64,000 bases of DNA from Mucilaginibacter phyllosphaerae. GTDB lineage: Bacteria > Bacteroidota > Bacteroidia > Sphingobacteriales > Sphingobacteriaceae. The position numbers were made by a program, and so were the translations under genes. The notes under the pieces are model-generated. The model was not told where the DNA came from, ran no database searches, and saw only the letters and a list, made by a program, of their open reading frames with translations. Shown here piece after piece: positions 25,916 to 32,046 of this stretch (its first letter is position 1; each line of letters opens with the position of its first letter). Where the stretch lies: the NCBI RefSeq assembly GCF_004378255.1, contig NZ_SNQG01000003.1, positions 186,001-250,000 on the forward strand, written 5' to 3'.

Positions 25916-27226
25916 CTATGCATTATTAAGCAAATATCCTTTAAATTCTTCAAAGCCGGTGCCTAAACTTGTGGCGTGATGTTCTTTTTTCTCTAAAGCT
26001 TTCACTTGAGCCGGGATATCAATTTTATCGGCTATTTCCGGTGTAAAAACATCCGGGAACTTACAGGGATGCGCGGTTGATAAAAATACGCCCGCTACAT
26101 CCTCCGTATGATTTGCCTGCTGATACTCCTTTAACGCTTTCCAGGCTATAGCGGTATGCGGGCAGGCCACATAGCTATATGCTTTATCTATGGCATCTAT
26201 GGCCTGCAGGGTTTCTTCGTCATTATAGGTATAGCCAACGATCAGCTTTGTAAGGGCCCCGGGTTGTTCGTCAAACAGGTTGGCTATGCGCACCCAGTTG
26301 CTTGGGTTGCCTACGTCCATTGCGTTAGATAAGGTTGCTACAGATGGCTTCGGCTCGTACACGCCTGTTTTCAGGAAGGCGGGCACAGTATCATTAGCGT
26401 TAGTTGCTGCGATGAATTGCTCAACTGGCAAACCCATCTTCCAGGCCAGTAAACCGGCGCCTATGTTACCAAAGTTACCGCTTGGTACAGCGAATATTAC
26501 TTTGTTGATACCTTGCCTAAGCAGCTGTGCGTAAGCATTAAAGTAATAGAACGTTTGCGGAATAAGCCTGGCTATATTGATAGAGTTTGCCGAAGTGAGG
26601 CGGAATTTCTGGTTAAGTTCGTTATCTGTAAAAGCTTGTTTAACCAGCGCCTGGCAATCATCAAACGTGCCGTCAATTTCTAATGCGCGGATGTTTTGGC
26701 CGTTAGTGGTTAACTGCTGTTCCTGTATCTGGCTTACCTTGCCTTTTGGATAAAGAATGGTTACCCGCGTATTGGGTACGCCTAAAAAGCCAAGAGCCAC
26801 GGCACCGCCGGTATCGCCGGATGTGGCAACCAGCACATCCAGTTGTTTTTCGCCTTCTTTTAAAAAATAGCTCATTACACGGCTCATAAAGCGTGCGCCA
26901 AAATCTTTAAACGCCAGGGATGGGCCATGAAAAAGCTCCAGCACGTAAATGTTCTCTTCGAGTTTAACCGCGGGTGCATAAAAGTTTATTGCATCATGAA
27001 TGATCGTTTTCAGGTCATCTGCCGGGATATCGTCGCCCAGCAGGTTTTGCGCTACATGGTAGGCAATCTCCGGCAGGGTATATTGGTCCAGATTGTTCAG
27101 AAATTTATCATCAAGCCGAGGGATCTCAACCGGCATATACAAACCCTTGTCTTGCGGCATGCTGTTAAAAACCGCCTCTTTAAAACCTACTCTTAAATCT
27201 TTATTGTTTGTGCTGTAAAATTTCAT
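25916..27226 (-). CDS. thrC: Threonine synthase
   Basis: 436 residues. PLP enzyme that converts O-phosphohomoserine to threonine. The N-terminus is typical (MKFYSTNNKDLRVGFKEAVFNSMPQDKGLYMP); the PLP lysine lies in SLAFKDFGARFM, and ATSGDTGGAVALGF plus VPSGNFGNIGAGLLAWKMGLP bind the cofactor phosphate. Third gene of the thr operon; a 113-base palindromic element separates it from thrB. Confidence 0.96.
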   Translation of the reverse strand: MKFYSTNNKDLRVGFKEAVFNSMPQDKGLYMPVEIPRLDDKFLNNLDQYTLPEIAYHVAQNLLGDDIPADDLKTIIHDAINFYAPAVKLEENIYVLELFHGPSLAFKDFGARFMSRVMSYFLKEGEKQLDVLVATSGDTGGAVALGFLGVPNTRVTILYPKGKVSQIQEQQLTTNGQNIRALEIDGTFDDCQALVKQAFTDNELNQKFRLTSANSINIARLIPQTFYYFNAYAQLLRQGINKVIFAVPSGNFGNIGAGLLAWKMGLPVEQFIAATNANDTVPAFLKTGVYEPKPSVATLSNAMDVGNPSNWVRIANLFDEQPGALTKLIVGYTYNDEETLQAIDAIDKAYSYVACPHTAIAWKALKEYQQANHTEDVAGVFLSTAHPCKFPDVFTPEIADKIDIPAQVKALEKKEHHATSLGTGFEEFKGYLLNNA

Positions 27227-27345: not shown

Positions 27346-28338
27346 TTATCCCAAAACCCTTGGCCCTGCATCATTGATGGTTGATACATAACCGTTAGAG
27401 CCTATTTTAATATTGGTTAAATGTTGTTGTAGTTTTTGGGTGATGCGCTTGGCGGTTTCCTCATCGCGGGTAAAGGCAAATACCGAAGGCCCCGAGCCGG
27501 AGATACCGAAACTCACCGCACCCAGATCCATCGCCATTTGGCGCATCATGTAAAAATCGGGAATGAGCATGCTGCGTACGGGCTCTACCAATACATCCTT
27601 CATGCTGCGGCCAATCAGGTCAATATCCTGCATGAACAGGCCGCTTACCAGCCCTGCTATATTCCCCCATTGGGTCACCGCATCCTTCATCTGGATGTTT
27701 TTACGGATGATCTGGCGGGCTTCTCTTGTTGGTACATCCACATCCGGGAACACAATGGCACACCATAAACCTGCCGGATGCGGTAAACGCACCACATCCA
27801 AGGGCTCATAACTGCGAATCAAAACAAAGCCACCCAATAAAGCAGGGGCAACGTTATCTGCATGGCCATGGCCGCATGCCATTTCTTCGCCCTTCATGGC
27901 AAAGGGTAGCAGGGCAGATGGGTCGCTTTCATCACCCAGTAAAGTTTTTATGGCAAACAACCCTGCCACCGTACTGGCCGAGCTGGAACCCAAACCGCTG
28001 CCTATCGGCATTTTTTTATGCAGCTCTATATCCACGCCCACATCAAGGCGATCAATACTTCTCAGGTAGTGTTCTACGCTTACACTTACGGTGTTTTTTG
28101 CCGGGTTAAGCGGCAGCCTGCCATCATCACCTGTAATTTTACTAATGGTGATGCCGGGCTTATTAGCCATGCGCATAATTACCTCATCGCCGGGTTCGTT
28201 CACAGCGAAGCCCAGCACATCAAACCCGCAAACCACATTAGCAACAGTTGCCGGTGCAAAAACGTGGATTCCCCCCCCGCCCCCTGAAGGGGGGGCTTTT
28301 GAAGGGCTTGGTTTCTTTATTTCTTTTATATTTTCCAT
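27346..28338 (-). CDS. thrB: Homoserine kinase with repeat-derived N-terminus
   Basis: 330 residues. GHMP-family kinase that phosphorylates homoserine. The ATP-binding loop PIGSGLGSSSASTVAGLFA and GISGSGPSVFAFTRD are clear. The conserved protein begins at IHVFAPATVANVVCGFD, about residue 24. The first ~23 residues (MENIKEIKKPSPSKAPPSGG and following glycines) are an extension, and residues 9-23 are encoded by an arm of the GC-rich repeat at 28271-28311. The normal start has probably been lost to, or extended by, repeat insertion. Confidence 0.95.
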   Translation of the reverse strand: MENIKEIKKPSPSKAPPSGGGGGIHVFAPATVANVVCGFDVLGFAVNEPGDEVIMRMANKPGITISKITGDDGRLPLNPAKNTVSVSVEHYLRSIDRLDVGVDIELHKKMPIGSGLGSSSASTVAGLFAIKTLLGDESDPSALLPFAMKGEEMACGHGHADNVAPALLGGFVLIRSYEPLDVVRLPHPAGLWCAIVFPDVDVPTREARQIIRKNIQMKDAVTQWGNIAGLVSGLFMQDIDLIGRSMKDVLVEPVRSMLIPDFYMMRQMAMDLGAVSFGISGSGPSVFAFTRDEETAKRITQKLQQHLTNIKIGSNGYVSTINDAGPRVLG

Positions 28339-28379
28339 TATATTAAATTCTGTTCCCCCTTCAGGGGGTTAGGGGGTTT
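28271..28379. repeat. GC-rich composite repeat, copy 2 (thrA/thrB)
   Basis: Arm 28271-28311 contains CGCCCCCTGAAGGGGGG then GCTTTTGAAGGGCTT; arm 28353-28379 is TTCCCCCTTCAGGGGG then TTAGGGGG. The thrA stop codon overlaps one arm, the thrB ATG (28338) lies between the arms, and the other arm is read as thrB codons 9-23. Confidence 0.88.
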
Positions 28380-30828
28380 AATTAGCACCTACATTTATCA
28401 GATCGGCAAACACACCGGCGGCAGTTACTTCGGCACCTGCACCGGGGCCTTTAACCACCAGCGGGCGCTCTTTATACCTGTCGGTAGTAAAGGATATAAT
28501 ATTATCACTACCACTCAGCATATAAAATGGGTGGCTTTCATCAACCATTTGCAGGGTGATAGATGCTTTGCCGTTTTCCAGCTTGCCAATGTAACGCAGC
28601 ACTTTCTTATCGTTTTCGGCCTGTTGTTTCAGGTTGGTAAAAAATGCGTCTTCGGCTTTCAGGGTGGCGTAAAAATCTTCTACCGTTTGGGCTTCTAAGC
28701 AGGCTTTAGGCAATACGCTTTCTATCTGTACATCGGCTTCTTCCATTTCGTGGCCGGCATCACGGGCCAGGATCAATATCTTACGCATAAAATCCTTACC
28801 GCTCAGATCATCGCGCGGATCGGGCTCGGTGTACCCTTTTTCCTGCGCTTCTTTTACCACATCATGGAAATTGGCATCACCCTTAAAGTGGTTAAAGATA
28901 AAGGATATTGTGCCAGAAAGGATAGCCTCTATCCGCTGGATGCGGTCGCCGCTGCTCATCAGGTCTTTTAAGGTACGGATAATGGGCAGGCCTGCGCCTA
29001 CGTTGGTTTCGTAAAAAAAATCAACCCCGTGGCGACGGGCGGTATCTCTGAATGTTTTGTATTGGGCGAAGGAAGCCGAGTTACCTATTTTATTACAGGT
29101 TACTACAGATATATTAGATTTAAAAACATCTTCGTAAAAAGCTATTGGTTTAGGGCTTGCCGTATTATCAATAAACACACAGTTGGGCAGGTTCATCTCT
29201 TTCATTTTGGCGATAAATCCGGCCAGGTCGGCTTCATGGTCAGAGGCCTGCAAATCGTTTTGCCAGGTATCTAACGATAAGCCATCGCTGTTGAACACCA
29301 TTTTACGGGTGTTGCTGATGCCTGCAATTTTAACCTGGATGCCGTTATTTTTCTGTAGAAAGTCTTTATGGGCATTTAGCTGGTTAAAAAGTGTTTTACC
29401 AATATTGCCTGTTCCCAAACAAAATGCATGCAGCGTTTTGGTTAGTTCGATAAAGAAAGCATCGTGCACGGCGTTTAAGGCCTTAGCAAGATCATGCGCC
29501 GAAATAATCACCGAGATATTATACTCCGACGAACCTTGCGCAATTGCTCTTACATTGACACCGTTACGGCCCAGCGCGTGGAATAATTTACCGCTCATGC
29601 CGGGGGTTTGTTTCATGTTTTCGCCTACGATGGCTAATATAGCCTGATTGCGCTCTATAACCAGCGGCTCCAGTTTGTTGGCCAATAGTTCCAGTTCAAA
29701 TTCCTGTTCTATCAGTTGCTGGGCCTTGTCTACATCGTGCGGCTGCACGGCAAAGGTGATGCTATGCTCTGATGACGATTGGGTGATGAGGATGATATTG
29801 ATCTGCTCGCGCGCCAGCAGCGAGAACAGCCTGCCGCTAAAACCCGATTTACCTACCATGCCGCTTCCTTGTAAATTAAGGATGCTGATGTTGTTGATAG
29901 ATGAGATACCCTTGATAGGCAAAGTAGAAACTTTACAATCATGGCGGATAACCGTACCGGCAAATGCCGGCTCAAAGGTGTTTTTGATCACTATCGGGAT
30001 CTTTTTAAGAAACGCCGGGATCATGGTTGGCGGGTAAATTACCTTTGCGCCGAAGTAAGATAATTCCATTGCTTCGGTATAAGTCAGCTCTTCCAGCGGG
30101 AAGGCTTTTTGCACCATGCGCGGGTCTGCCGTCATCATGCCATTCACATCCGTCCAGATCTGTATCTCTGCAGCATTAAGTGCAGCGCCTAATATAGCAG
30201 CCGTGTAATCGCTGCCGCCGCGGCCTAAGGTGGTTATCTGCCCGGCATCATTACCCGCAATAAAACCGGTAACGATCAGCAGTTTATCGTTGTTTTGTTG
30301 GTAAAATGATTTCAGCAGCACATCTGTCAGTTCGCTGTTTACTTTTGCGTTGCCAAAGGCGTTATCAGTTTTGATCAAATCTGATGCATCAACAAAAAGC
30401 ACATCTTTAAAATGCTGGGCGGCTATTTTGCTCACCATTAAGGCCGAACAACGCTCACCAAAACTCAGGATCTGGTCGCGGGTTTTGGGGGTAAGTTCAC
30501 GCAGGGTAAGTACCCCCTGCAGCAATTCTTCCAGTTGGTTAAAATGAATTTTTAGGCGGGTAAAGGCAGGGTTTTGGTTTTGCACATCAAGCAGTGCTTT
30601 TACAACATCAAAATGGCGTTTTTCCAGTTCGGCTAATGCTGCGGTAAACTCACTCCCTTCGGCTGCACCCTCTGCCATGGCAATAAGCAAATTAGTTACC
30701 CCGCCCATGGCAGATAGTACCACCACGGGGCGGCTGCCCGGTTTATCCTCGTCTTTTAGAATATCCAACAGGGTTTTGATGCTGCCTACCGAACCAACCG
30801 ACGTACCTCCGAATTTTAATACTTTCAT
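28378..30828 (-). CDS. thrA: Bifunctional aspartate kinase / homoserine dehydrogenase I
   Basis: 816 residues. Aspartokinase (residues 1-~295: MKVLKFGGTSVGSVGSIK), two ACT-type regulatory domains (~310-460: INNISILNLQGSGMVG, QAILAIVGENMKQTPG), then homoserine dehydrogenase (~465-816: FCLGTGNIGKTLFNQL NAD site, FFYETNVGAGLPII, DPRDDLSGKDFMRK). It controls entry of aspartate into threonine synthesis, and threonine feedback through the ACT domains is known for this type. First structural gene of the operon, behind an attenuator (thrL). Confidence 0.96.
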   Translation of the reverse strand: MKVLKFGGTSVGSVGSIKTLLDILKDEDKPGSRPVVVLSAMGGVTNLLIAMAEGAAEGSEFTAALAELEKRHFDVVKALLDVQNQNPAFTRLKIHFNQLEELLQGVLTLRELTPKTRDQILSFGERCSALMVSKIAAQHFKDVLFVDASDLIKTDNAFGNAKVNSELTDVLLKSFYQQNNDKLLIVTGFIAGNDAGQITTLGRGGSDYTAAILGAALNAAEIQIWTDVNGMMTADPRMVQKAFPLEELTYTEAMELSYFGAKVIYPPTMIPAFLKKIPIVIKNTFEPAFAGTVIRHDCKVSTLPIKGISSINNISILNLQGSGMVGKSGFSGRLFSLLAREQINIILITQSSSEHSITFAVQPHDVDKAQQLIEQEFELELLANKLEPLVIERNQAILAIVGENMKQTPGMSGKLFHALGRNGVNVRAIAQGSSEYNISVIISAHDLAKALNAVHDAFFIELTKTLHAFCLGTGNIGKTLFNQLNAHKDFLQKNNGIQVKIAGISNTRKMVFNSDGLSLDTWQNDLQASDHEADLAGFIAKMKEMNLPNCVFIDNTASPKPIAFYEDVFKSNISVVTCNKIGNSASFAQYKTFRDTARRHGVDFFYETNVGAGLPIIRTLKDLMSSGDRIQRIEAILSGTISFIFNHFKGDANFHDVVKEAQEKGYTEPDPRDDLSGKDFMRKILILARDAGHEMEEADVQIESVLPKACLEAQTVEDFYATLKAEDAFFTNLKQQAENDKKVLRYIGKLENGKASITLQMVDESHPFYMLSGSDNIISFTTDRYKERPLVVKGPGAGAEVTAAGVFADLINVGAN

Positions 30829-30897
30829 TTTTTGTATCTGTTAATAACTTCTTAAACCCACCTAAATGCTCTCGCTTAGAGAGGATAAGGTGAGGCC

Positions 30898-30930
30898 AAA
30901 AAAAAGCCTTCCTCTTTTGGAGGAAGGCTT
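30898..30930 (-). terminator. Attenuator terminator ahead of thrA
   Basis: On the minus strand AAGCCTTCCTC, loop CAAAA, GAGGAAGGCTT, then at least six T: an 11-bp perfect stem located after the leader peptide and ~70 bases before the thrA ATG. Confidence 0.9.
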
Positions 30931-30976
30931 CTGTTTGGTTTGTTTATGTTTTTACACCATACGATTACTTTCCTCC
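30919..30976 (-). promoter_or_regulatory. Predicted antiterminator of the thr attenuator
   Basis: GGAGGAA at 30970-30976 (minus strand, in the last leader codons) is the exact complement of TTCCTCC in the left arm of the terminator (30919-30925). If it pairs there, the terminator cannot form. A ribosome that reaches the leader stop would cover GGAGGAA and permit termination; a ribosome stalled at the earlier Thr/Ile codons would leave it free. Confidence 0.75.
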
Positions 30977-31030
30977 GAAATATTTGCCGGTGGTAATAAT
31001 AGTAATAATTGTGGTGTTGTTAATTGTCAT
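30965..31030 (-). CDS. thrL: thr operon leader peptide (Thr/Ile-rich)
   Basis: A 21-residue reading frame, too short for ordinary gene finders. It begins MTINNTTIITIITTG and ends KYFGGK; 11 of 21 residues are Thr (6) or Ile (5), the amino acids whose synthesis depends on the operon. E. coli thrL has the same logic but unrelated detail. A promoter lies 41 bases upstream, an intrinsic terminator 35 bases downstream, and the last codons contain a competing antiterminator strand. Starved for charged tRNA-Thr or tRNA-Ile, the ribosome should stall and allow readthrough into thrA. Confidence 0.85.
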   Translation of the reverse strand: MTINNTTIITIITTGKYFGGK

Positions 31031-31070
31031 ATATAATGCCGGTAAAGTAAGTAGAATTAATTTTAAATAC

Positions 31071-31099
31071 CAAATGTAAAATGGTTTTATTTTTTCAAA
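31071..31099 (-). promoter_or_regulatory. Promoter of the thr operon
   Basis: On the minus strand TTTG (31099-31096), 17 bases, then TACATTTG (31078-31071), matching TTTG/TAnnTTTG. Transcription would start near 31064, about 34 bases before the leader peptide. The rsgA gene lies divergently on the other side. Confidence 0.7.
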
Positions 31100-31128: not shown

Positions 31129-32046
31129 ATGCAGGGACTCATTACAAAATCAACCGGGAGCTGGTACCAGGTAAGGTGTGGAGAAGACACGATAGACTGC
31201 CGGATAAAAGGTAAATTCCGGATCAAGGGTATCACCACCACCAACCCATTGGCCGTTGGCGATGTGGTTGATTTTGAGATGGAACCGGAGCAGGGAACGG
31301 GAGTGATCACTAATTTACACCAGCGTAAAAACTATATTATCCGTAAGGCTATTAATCTTTCCAGGCAGGCGCAGATCATTGCCGCCAATCTGGATAGGGC
31401 CTTGCTGGTGGTTACCCTGGCATCGCCACGTACCTCTCTGGGGTTTATAGACCGTTTTTTAGTTACTGCCGAGGCTTATGATATCCCTGCCTGTTTAATA
31501 TTTAATAAGCTGGATCTGTTTAGCGATGAGGGCCTTGAAATACTGGCCGAATATCAGGCGATATATGAAAGCATAGGCTATCCCTGCTATTCGGTATCTG
31601 CGTTAGCAGGAACTAACATTGATGAGGTGCAGCAATTGCTTAAAGACAAGGTAACCCTGTTTTCGGGCCACTCGGGCGTAGGTAAATCCAGCCTGATCAA
31701 CCGGTTATTGCCCGACCTTGACCTGCGCACACACATGGTATCTGAATGGAGCGACAAAGGCATGCATACCACCACTTTTGCCGAAATGTTTGAACTGCCC
31801 CAAGGCGGATACATTATTGATACCCCCGGCATCCGCGAACTGGGTGTGATAGATATTGAGAAAGAAATACTCAGTCACTTTTTCCCCGAAATGCGCGAAC
31901 GTATGAATCGATGCCGGTTTAATAACTGTCGCCATATTAATGAACCCGGCTGCGCCGTATTGCAAGCCCTTGAACAGGGTGAGATCTCGCCATCCCGGTA
32001 TGATAGTTATTTGAGTATTTATAATGGGAACGATACCAGGGCTTAA
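31129..32046 (+). CDS. rsgA: Ribosome small-subunit biogenesis GTPase RsgA
   Basis: 305 residues. Circularly permuted GTPase that helps mature 30S subunits: N-terminal OB fold, then G4 IFNKLDLF, G1 FSGHSGVGKSSLINR, G3 DTPGIRELG, and a C-terminal zinc site CRFNNCRHINEPGCAV. Full length. It is divergent from the thr leader and 94 bases upstream of dtd, with a palindromic repeat between. Confidence 0.95.
   Translation: MQGLITKSTGSWYQVRCGEDTIDCRIKGKFRIKGITTTNPLAVGDVVDFEMEPEQGTGVITNLHQRKNYIIRKAINLSRQAQIIAANLDRALLVVTLASPRTSLGFIDRFLVTAEAYDIPACLIFNKLDLFSDEGLEILAEYQAIYESIGYPCYSVSALAGTNIDEVQQLLKDKVTLFSGHSGVGKSSLINRLLPDLDLRTHMVSEWSDKGMHTTTFAEMFELPQGGYIIDTPGIRELGVIDIEKEILSHFFPEMRERMNRCRFNNCRHINEPGCAVLQALEQGEISPSRYDSYLSIYNGNDTRA

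What the first reader, a model, noticed from the sequence alone, without database searches (positions are those of the whole stretch)
30828..31099. Complete threonine/isoleucine attenuator ahead of thrA, with a short leader peptide
Upstream of thrA the minus strand has, in order, a TTTG/TACATTTG promoter, a 21-codon frame starting MTINNTTIITIITTG (11 of 21 residues Thr or Ile), a GGAGGAA segment in its last codons, an 11-bp terminator with T-run, and thrA. GGAGGAA is the exact complement of TTCCTCC in the terminator's left arm, so the two structures exclude each other. This is the E. coli thr logic built from unrelated sequence in a Bacteroidota genome.
Basis: partly seen in the sequence, partly recalled or inferred. 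Interest (0 to 1): 0.85.

Follow-up and report, generated by a model that had tools for sequence, protein, structure and literature searches.

The report
Threonine operon leader-peptide attenuator, Bacteroidota
A short Thr/Ile-rich peptide frame and a pair of competing RNA hairpins sit ahead of the threonine genes and almost certainly switch them off when threonine and isoleucine are plentiful; the trick is textbook, but it has been little documented in this phylum.

Summary
A 21-codon Thr/Ile leader (30965-31030, minus strand), a GGAGGAA antiterminator segment and an 11-bp terminator with T-run lie ahead of thrA-thrB-thrC. Leader and terminator were found in all 86 sequences compared (window, 79 named near relatives, 6 unnamed). 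Thr/Ile identity is kept at codon level. Terminator and antiterminator covary. E. coli thrL has the same geometry: 21 codons, antiterminator at nucleotide 54. The element is below Rfam's Thr_leader cut-off (40.5 vs 55 bits). The same genome has His and Trp leader frames before hisG and trpE. New member of a known kind; nothing was tested experimentally.

The parts
   Evidence: T, T, G in 80, 78 and 77 of 86 aligned sequences
31042..31049 (-). -7-like box TACTTTAC; predicted transcription start about 31037, 7 nt before the leader ATG
   Evidence: TTG-N20-T[AT]NNTTT[AG] in 68 of 86, 48 of them exactly TTACTTTA, window included; shuffles with spacing 17-23 give 4.4%; TTG + TAnnTT[AG]Y register in 59 of 86. 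The start site is inference.
30965..31030 (-). leader peptide frame MTINNTTIITIITTGKYFGGK and stop
30989..31027 (-). codons 2-14, holding all 11 Thr/Ile control codons
   Evidence: 87% of differing codon pairs at codons 7-14 stay Thr/Ile against 40% for random single changes
30988..30993 (-). segment 1, CCACCG, made of the last two Thr codons and Gly
   Evidence: RNAalifold; last two Thr codons are ACC in 140 of 172 against 121 of 399 earlier
30970..30977 (-). segment 2, CGGAGGAA: pairs with segment 1 (1:2) or with segment 3 (antiterminator)
30936..30961 (-). linker with conserved TATGGTGTAA (TGGT 30959-30956) and ACCA (30939-30936), a possible inner stem of the antiterminator
   Evidence: RNAalifold; TGGT...ACCA in 56 of 86; register-free swap test not significant, P 0.295
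30904..30930 (-). intrinsic terminator stem-loop (segments 3 and 4), segment 3 TTCCTCC at 30925-30919
   Evidence: 97.2% of cells paired, 8 of 11 pairs with changes on both sides in 29 sequences
30898..30905 (-). terminator T-run (8 T)
28378..30828 (-). thrA, bifunctional aspartate kinase/homoserine dehydrogenase I
   Evidence: NF006959, 1047.5 bits, cut-off 726
27346..28338 (-). thrB, homoserine kinase
   Evidence: NF002288, 373.3 bits, cut-off 194
25916..27226 (-). thrC, threonine synthase
   Evidence: TIGR00260, 302 bits, cut-off 167.1

Best explanation
A ribosome-mediated transcription attenuator of thrABC that senses charged tRNA-Thr and tRNA-Ile. RNA polymerase starts near 31037 and a ribosome begins the leader frame. 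With Thr and Ile plentiful the ribosome reaches the stop codon and covers segment 2, so segments 3 and 4 fold into the terminator and thrA is not transcribed. With either amino acid scarce the ribosome halts on codons 2-14; at the last ones it covers segment 1, segment 2 is free just ahead of it, segments 2 and 3 form the antiterminator and transcription continues. With no ribosome, the 1:2 hairpin hides segment 2 and termination is the default. Shown by sequence: the frame, its codon conservation, the terminator, the 2:3 complementarity. Inferred: the start site, translation of the leader, stalling, and termination in the cell.
For: Leader and terminator in 86 of 86 sequences (the script takes the best frame and best stem, lowest terminator score 20.8). 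Thr/Ile kept at 87% of differing codon pairs against 40% expected (50 leaders of 21 codons). Terminator covariation. Antiterminator: duplex energy native -15.2 against -13.56 kcal/mol for swapped partners, P 0.0004 over 29 representatives; with its inner stem 84.0% of cells paired against 79.8% shuffled, 0 of 500. When the terminator stem changes to GCGTCCCGA (L088, L090) or GCGCTTCTCTC (L067, L073) the leader segment changes to match. RNAalifold gives the antiterminator when the right arm is left out, and terminator plus 1:2 hairpin when it is present. The 1:2 hairpin is more stable than peptide-preserving recodings in 31 of 33. The last Thr codon lies 8-15 nt before the antiterminator in 72 of 86. 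E. coli thrL, run through the same script, has the same plan.
Against: No RNA or reporter data. The 1:2 pairs do not covary significantly in fixed columns (34 of 500 shuffles reach the cells paired, 352 of 500 the pairs with both sides changed); only 8 of 33 hairpins are individually at P 0.05 or below against recodings, and the window's own is not (z -0.72, P 0.24). In 6 of 29 representatives (L046, L066, L069, L070, L077, L079) a third or more of shuffled leader segments pair as well with the terminator arm. The antiterminator helix itself has only 4 cells changed on both sides, most variation being A-U to G-U, and 27 of 500 shuffles reach the number of doubly changed pairs of antiterminator plus inner stem. 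E. coli thrL folded without the right arm gave its 1:2 structure, not the antiterminator, so that fold test does not separate the states in a proven case. No Rfam hit at gathering in the window or in 17 relatives.
Confidence: 0.93

Rival explanations
1. Two-state attenuator, without a functional 1:2 hairpin: the ribosome alone decides whether GGAGGAA is free.
For: Fixed-column 1:2 pairs show no significant covariation; the window's own 1:2 stem is not significantly better than recodings (P 0.24), and L012 and L017 fold worse than theirs on average.
Against: 31 of 33 representatives are more stable than the mean of peptide-preserving recodings, and ACC is chosen for the last two Thr codons in 140 of 172 against 121 of 399; RNAalifold finds the stem with 33 representatives and with all 86.
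Confidence: 0.2
2. The leader is translated but control is not by termination: the terminator is constitutive, or thrA has its own promoter and the leader is a relic.
For: 74 nt separate terminator and thrA in the window, and no expression data exist here.
Against: 56 of 86 have 31 nt or less between terminator and thrA; terminator and leader segment co-vary.
Confidence: 0.04
3. The Thr/Ile run, the hairpin and their complementarity are chance in an AT-rich intergenic stretch.
For: Most Thr and Ile codons used here are A/T-rich.
Against: Only one such frame in 64 kb; a like frame with terminator in 86 of 86.
Confidence: 0.005

Closest known systems
Escherichia coli thr operon attenuator (thrL)
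   Same: 21-codon Thr/Ile leader; antiterminator begins 54 nt after the start of the ATG and 12 nt before the end of the stop codon; it pairs with the terminator's left arm; hairpin from the last Thr codons; thrA follows.
   Different: Stem sequences differ (GGTGCGGGCT/AGCCCGCACC against GGAGGAA/TTCCTCC); linker 25 nt against 44 nt; Bacteroidota-type promoter; no Shine-Dalgarno use expected (start of the abstract of PMC9976891, seen in the listing).
Rfam RF00506 Thr_leader
   Same: Best of 4227 families for this stretch, matched end to end, E 1.2e-6 for 166 bases.
   Different: 40.5 bits, below the curated cut-off of 55.
Leader-peptide attenuators reported in Flavobacterium psychrophilum (PMC9723704; section 19 read in full, other passages seen)
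   Same: 'Strong clues' for leader peptide attenuation upstream of amino-acid biosynthesis operons in the same phylum.
   Different: The main text has no occurrence of threonine or thrA; its supplement could not be read here.
Bacteroid-trp motif RF01692 (PMC2864571, one table passage seen)
   Same: Listed as a likely cis-regulatory RNA in Bacteroidetes.
   Different: Not matched by the window, nor by the stretch around trpE of this genome at E 0.5.

Membership tests
Ribosome-mediated amino-acid transcription attenuator | short frame rich in codons of the operon's end product | tested here: met
   86 of 86; 7-13 Thr+Ile per leader, codon selection
Ribosome-mediated amino-acid transcription attenuator | intrinsic terminator between leader and first gene | tested here: met
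   (by sequence and covariation, not by transcript)
Ribosome-mediated amino-acid transcription attenuator | antiterminator mutually exclusive with the terminator, overlapping the leader's end | tested here: met
   six of 29 representatives not above shuffles
Ribosome-mediated amino-acid transcription attenuator | 1:2 hairpin whose 5' side holds control codons | tested here: inconclusive
   for; fixed-column covariation not significant:
Ribosome-mediated amino-acid transcription attenuator | leader translated, read-through depends on Thr/Ile supply | not testable with these tools
   needs experiment
Rfam RF00506 Thr_leader | score at or above the gathering cut-off of 55 bits | tested here: not met
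   40.5 bits; 0 of 17 relatives had any hit at gathering

The most novel reading that the evidence does not exclude
The conserved block GGAGGAA-N~10-ATGGTGTAA across and after the leader stop is a second ribosome input: a Shine-Dalgarno-like segment followed by a two-codon frame (ATG GTG TAA or ATG TTG TAA/TAG, 63 of 86). Bacteroidia ribosomes normally ignore Shine-Dalgarno sequences, and those lacking bS21 'gain function' (title and start of abstract of PMC9976891, listing; that the gain is Shine-Dalgarno recognition is recalled). The thr attenuator could then also read ribosome composition. The simpler reading of the block is an inner stem of the antiterminator.
Probability: 0.05. Interest if true: 0.8.

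Novelty: new member of a known kind. Interest (0 to 1): 0.42.

Why it matters
[quoted passage not shown] A complete thr attenuator in 86 of 86 sequences from Mucilaginibacter and relatives out to Hymenobacter and Pontibacter, with E. coli geometry, makes convergence against inheritance testable. It is also an attenuator in a phylum whose ribosomes do not use Shine-Dalgarno pairing, where a GGAGGA segment inside a translated leader should be tolerable (inference). Leader frames before thrA, hisG and trpE in one genome suggest that attenuation is routine there.

Tried and rejected
Eighteen of 86 lack the alternative TTG-N20 box too; one of these (L007) has only 275 nt of upstream sequence, and for some the script took a longer leader frame, which shifts the place searched. 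The TGGT:ACCA inner stem was proposed; RNAalifold supports it but the register-free swap test does not (P 0.295), so it stays tentative. A second copy of the switch in the genome was sought by pattern; the one match is the locus itself. A leader before ilvD was looked for and none was evident. Homology of the leader with E. coli thrL was tried by peptide alignment: score 19, P 0.023 against shuffles, too weak and too low in complexity to decide. The other thr leader type (Noticed in passing) was not explained.

Literature: searches listed no paper whose title or abstract start describes a thr attenuator in Bacteroidota (one search listed 20 of 24). I looked inside five papers only (PMC9723704, PMC7366714, PMC2965389, PMC2864571, PMC3766115). 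The 2004 survey by Vitreschak and colleagues, which I recall as mentioning Bacteroidetes/Chlorobi attenuators, was not seen. I make no claim of first report.

Rows dropped or chosen: of 277 relatives found the tool kept the best 80; L055 was dropped for lack of upstream sequence (79 kept). Representatives: 29 by a 75% identity filter on the leader end, 35, 33 (different lists) and 29 picked by me for diversity. The Hymenobacter and Solirubrum rows (L066, L070, L071, L076, L079) are among the 86 and of the 86-sequence folds, but not in its 33-sequence folds nor in alignment A1; all of these but L076 are. For L051 I set the antiterminator place by hand. In one search locus L166 was cut at the wrong place and is not informative.

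Full report
What is there. The window belongs to a 4.42 Mb genome whose ThrA is up to 94% identical to those of named Mucilaginibacter species. On the minus strand thrA (28378-30828), thrB and thrC form a run, named by NCBIfam above cut-off; rsgA diverges at 31129. Among frames of 8-60 codons in the window the leader is the only one with 8 or more Thr/Ile in ten residues.

Is it conserved? One search found 277 relatives of ThrA and kept the best 80; 79 have upstream sequence. With the window and six unnamed members of its family this makes 86. In all 86 the best-scoring frame is Thr/Ile-rich (7-13 Thr+Ile, median length 21) and is followed, a median of 32 nt after its stop, by a terminator-like stem with T-run (lowest score 20.8). 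Record titles include Mucilaginibacter, Arcticibacter, Daejeonella, Olivibacter, Parapedobacter, Hufsiella, Pontibacter, Hymenobacter and Solirubrum. These are the nearest ThrA sequences, so this is conservation among relatives, not a phylum census. In 50 leaders of 21 codons, 87% of differing codon pairs at codons 7-14 remain Thr/Ile against 40% for random single-base changes, while the synonymous share is near neutral (31% against 29%). This speaks for selection on which tRNA is read.

Structure. The terminator covaries strongly (97.2% of cells paired, 8 of 11 pairs changed on both sides, 29 sequences). The antiterminator tracks it: swapped partners pair less well (native -15.2, permuted mean -13.56 kcal/mol, P 0.0004, 29 representatives). 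Counted together with the inner TGGT:ACCA stem, cells paired, doubly changed cells and the covariation score exceed all 500 shuffles, but doubly changed pairs (27 of 500) and pair types (13 of 500) do not; the antiterminator helix alone is 90.8% paired with 4 doubly changed cells. Shuffles do not remove relatedness. The clearest cases are L088/L090 and L067/L073, where a different terminator stem is matched by a different leader segment in the same place. Six of 29 representatives do not beat their own shuffles: two Hymenobacter (L066, L070), Solirubrum (L079), two Parapedobacter (L069, L077) and one Mucilaginibacter (L046). Folding without the right arm gives the antiterminator; folding all gives the terminator plus a hairpin between CCACCG, the last Thr codons, and CGGAGG. 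That hairpin beats the mean of peptide-preserving recodings in 31 of 33 (mean z -1.32; 8 individually at P 0.05 or below; window z -0.72), and the last two Thr codons are ACC in 140 of 172 against 121 of 399 for earlier ones. Against it, fixed-column covariation is not significant; the register appears to shift between genera, which column counts cannot follow. I rate the 1:2 hairpin probable.

Geometry. The last Thr codon ends 8-15 nt before the antiterminator in 72 of 86. A ribosome halted there would cover about that much ahead (footprint recalled, not from a call), leaving segment 2 just free. E. coli K-12 thrL, fetched and run through the same procedure, has 21 codons and its antiterminator 54 nt from the ATG and 12 nt before the stop's end, as in the window. 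Folded without its right arm the E. coli leader gave the 1:2 structure rather than the antiterminator, so the fold test alone is not decisive.

Promoter. In the register TAnnTT[AG]Y (59 of 86) the box resembles both the sigma-A box TAnnTTTG and the SM5 box TAnnTTGY, both at -12 to -5, reported for F. psychrophilum (PMC9723704, passages seen). With that spacing transcription would start near 31037, 7 nt before the leader ATG; the median over the 59 is 9 nt. Such short 5' UTRs are rare in two species studied: about 3.7% under 10 nt in B. thetaiotaomicron and 5.5% leaderless in F. psychrophilum (passages).

Comparison. In mechanism this is the E. coli thr attenuator. By Rfam's criterion it is not a member of Thr_leader (40.5 against 55 bits; no hit at gathering in the window, or 17 relatives). 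Whether it descends from a common leader or arose anew is open. F. psychrophilum work already reported signs of leader-peptide attenuation before amino-acid operons, so the kind is known in the phylum; I found no description of this one in the searches listed under Tried and rejected.

Context. In the same genome hisG follows a His-rich frame (MELYKQHHLHLHHHRPVMNR) and trpE a Trp-bearing frame (MKKTTLNTNWWHYVKIWQPDSF, read by eye and translated) with a terminator-like stem; ilvD shows none. In other Bacteroidota families thrA has a different Thr/Ile leader type, described under Noticed in passing.

Verdict. Real and functional by strong comparative evidence, well read by the first stage apart from the promoter and the missing 1:2 segment; a new member of a known kind rather than a new kind.

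Noticed in passing
L105, L106, L108-L111, L125 (f4), L115-L118 (f2), L119, L120 (f3), L104, L107, L126-L128 (f8), L149, L152 (f23), L131 (f11, doubtful); upstream of thrA: A second thr leader type in other Bacteroidota families: a longer Thr/Ile-rich frame whose stop codon lies in the loop of a G/C hairpin (ACCCC-TTA-GGGGT, AACCCC-ATAA-GGGGTT, ACGGG-GTAA-CCCGT), with no intrinsic terminator found after it by the scan. 26 of 63 upstream regions outside the window's family have the Thr/Ile frame and 21 also the stop hairpin, against 1.7% and 0.08% of shuffles. In 29 more loci of family f4 (one, L166, mis-cut) 21 have the frame and 5 the strict stop hairpin; many others show ACCC-TTT-GGGGT just before the stop. 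Mechanism unexplained.
   Followed up: partly
L157 (hisG) and L158 (trpE), same genome as the window: His-rich leader frame before hisG with a CATCACCG:CGGTGATG hairpin near its end, and a Trp leader frame followed by AACCCGGCGAA...TTCGCCGGGTTTTTTT before trpE; no Rfam match to either stretch at E 0.5.
   Followed up: partly
30829-30897 (-): About 70 nt with a small palindrome (CTCTCTAAGCGAGAG) between terminator and thrA; the median spacing is 21 nt, but L003-L007, L009, L010, L033 and L056 carry 109-139 nt, in L005, L009 and L010 with a CTCTCC...GAGAG palindrome, suggesting a mobile repeat element. No second copy in the window by blastn.
   Followed up: partly
28280-28370: Two CCCCCTGAAGGGGG-like palindromes, one between thrA and thrB and one inside the first codons of thrB, where it encodes the run APPSGGGGG.
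   Followed up: no
L092 (family f2): A member of another family has the window's type of attenuator (terminator GGCCTTCCTCC, by eye) with Met as well as Thr and Ile in the leader (MIARAFRITGRIGMTTIMSIMGDVQSWR), and a ThrA 62% identical to the window's, possibly transferred.
   Followed up: no
family f4 genomes, second matches: Many have a second aspartate kinase/homoserine dehydrogenase match (about 34-37% identity), mostly in an open frame of about 1130 codons, a likely fusion with a further enzyme.
   Followed up: no
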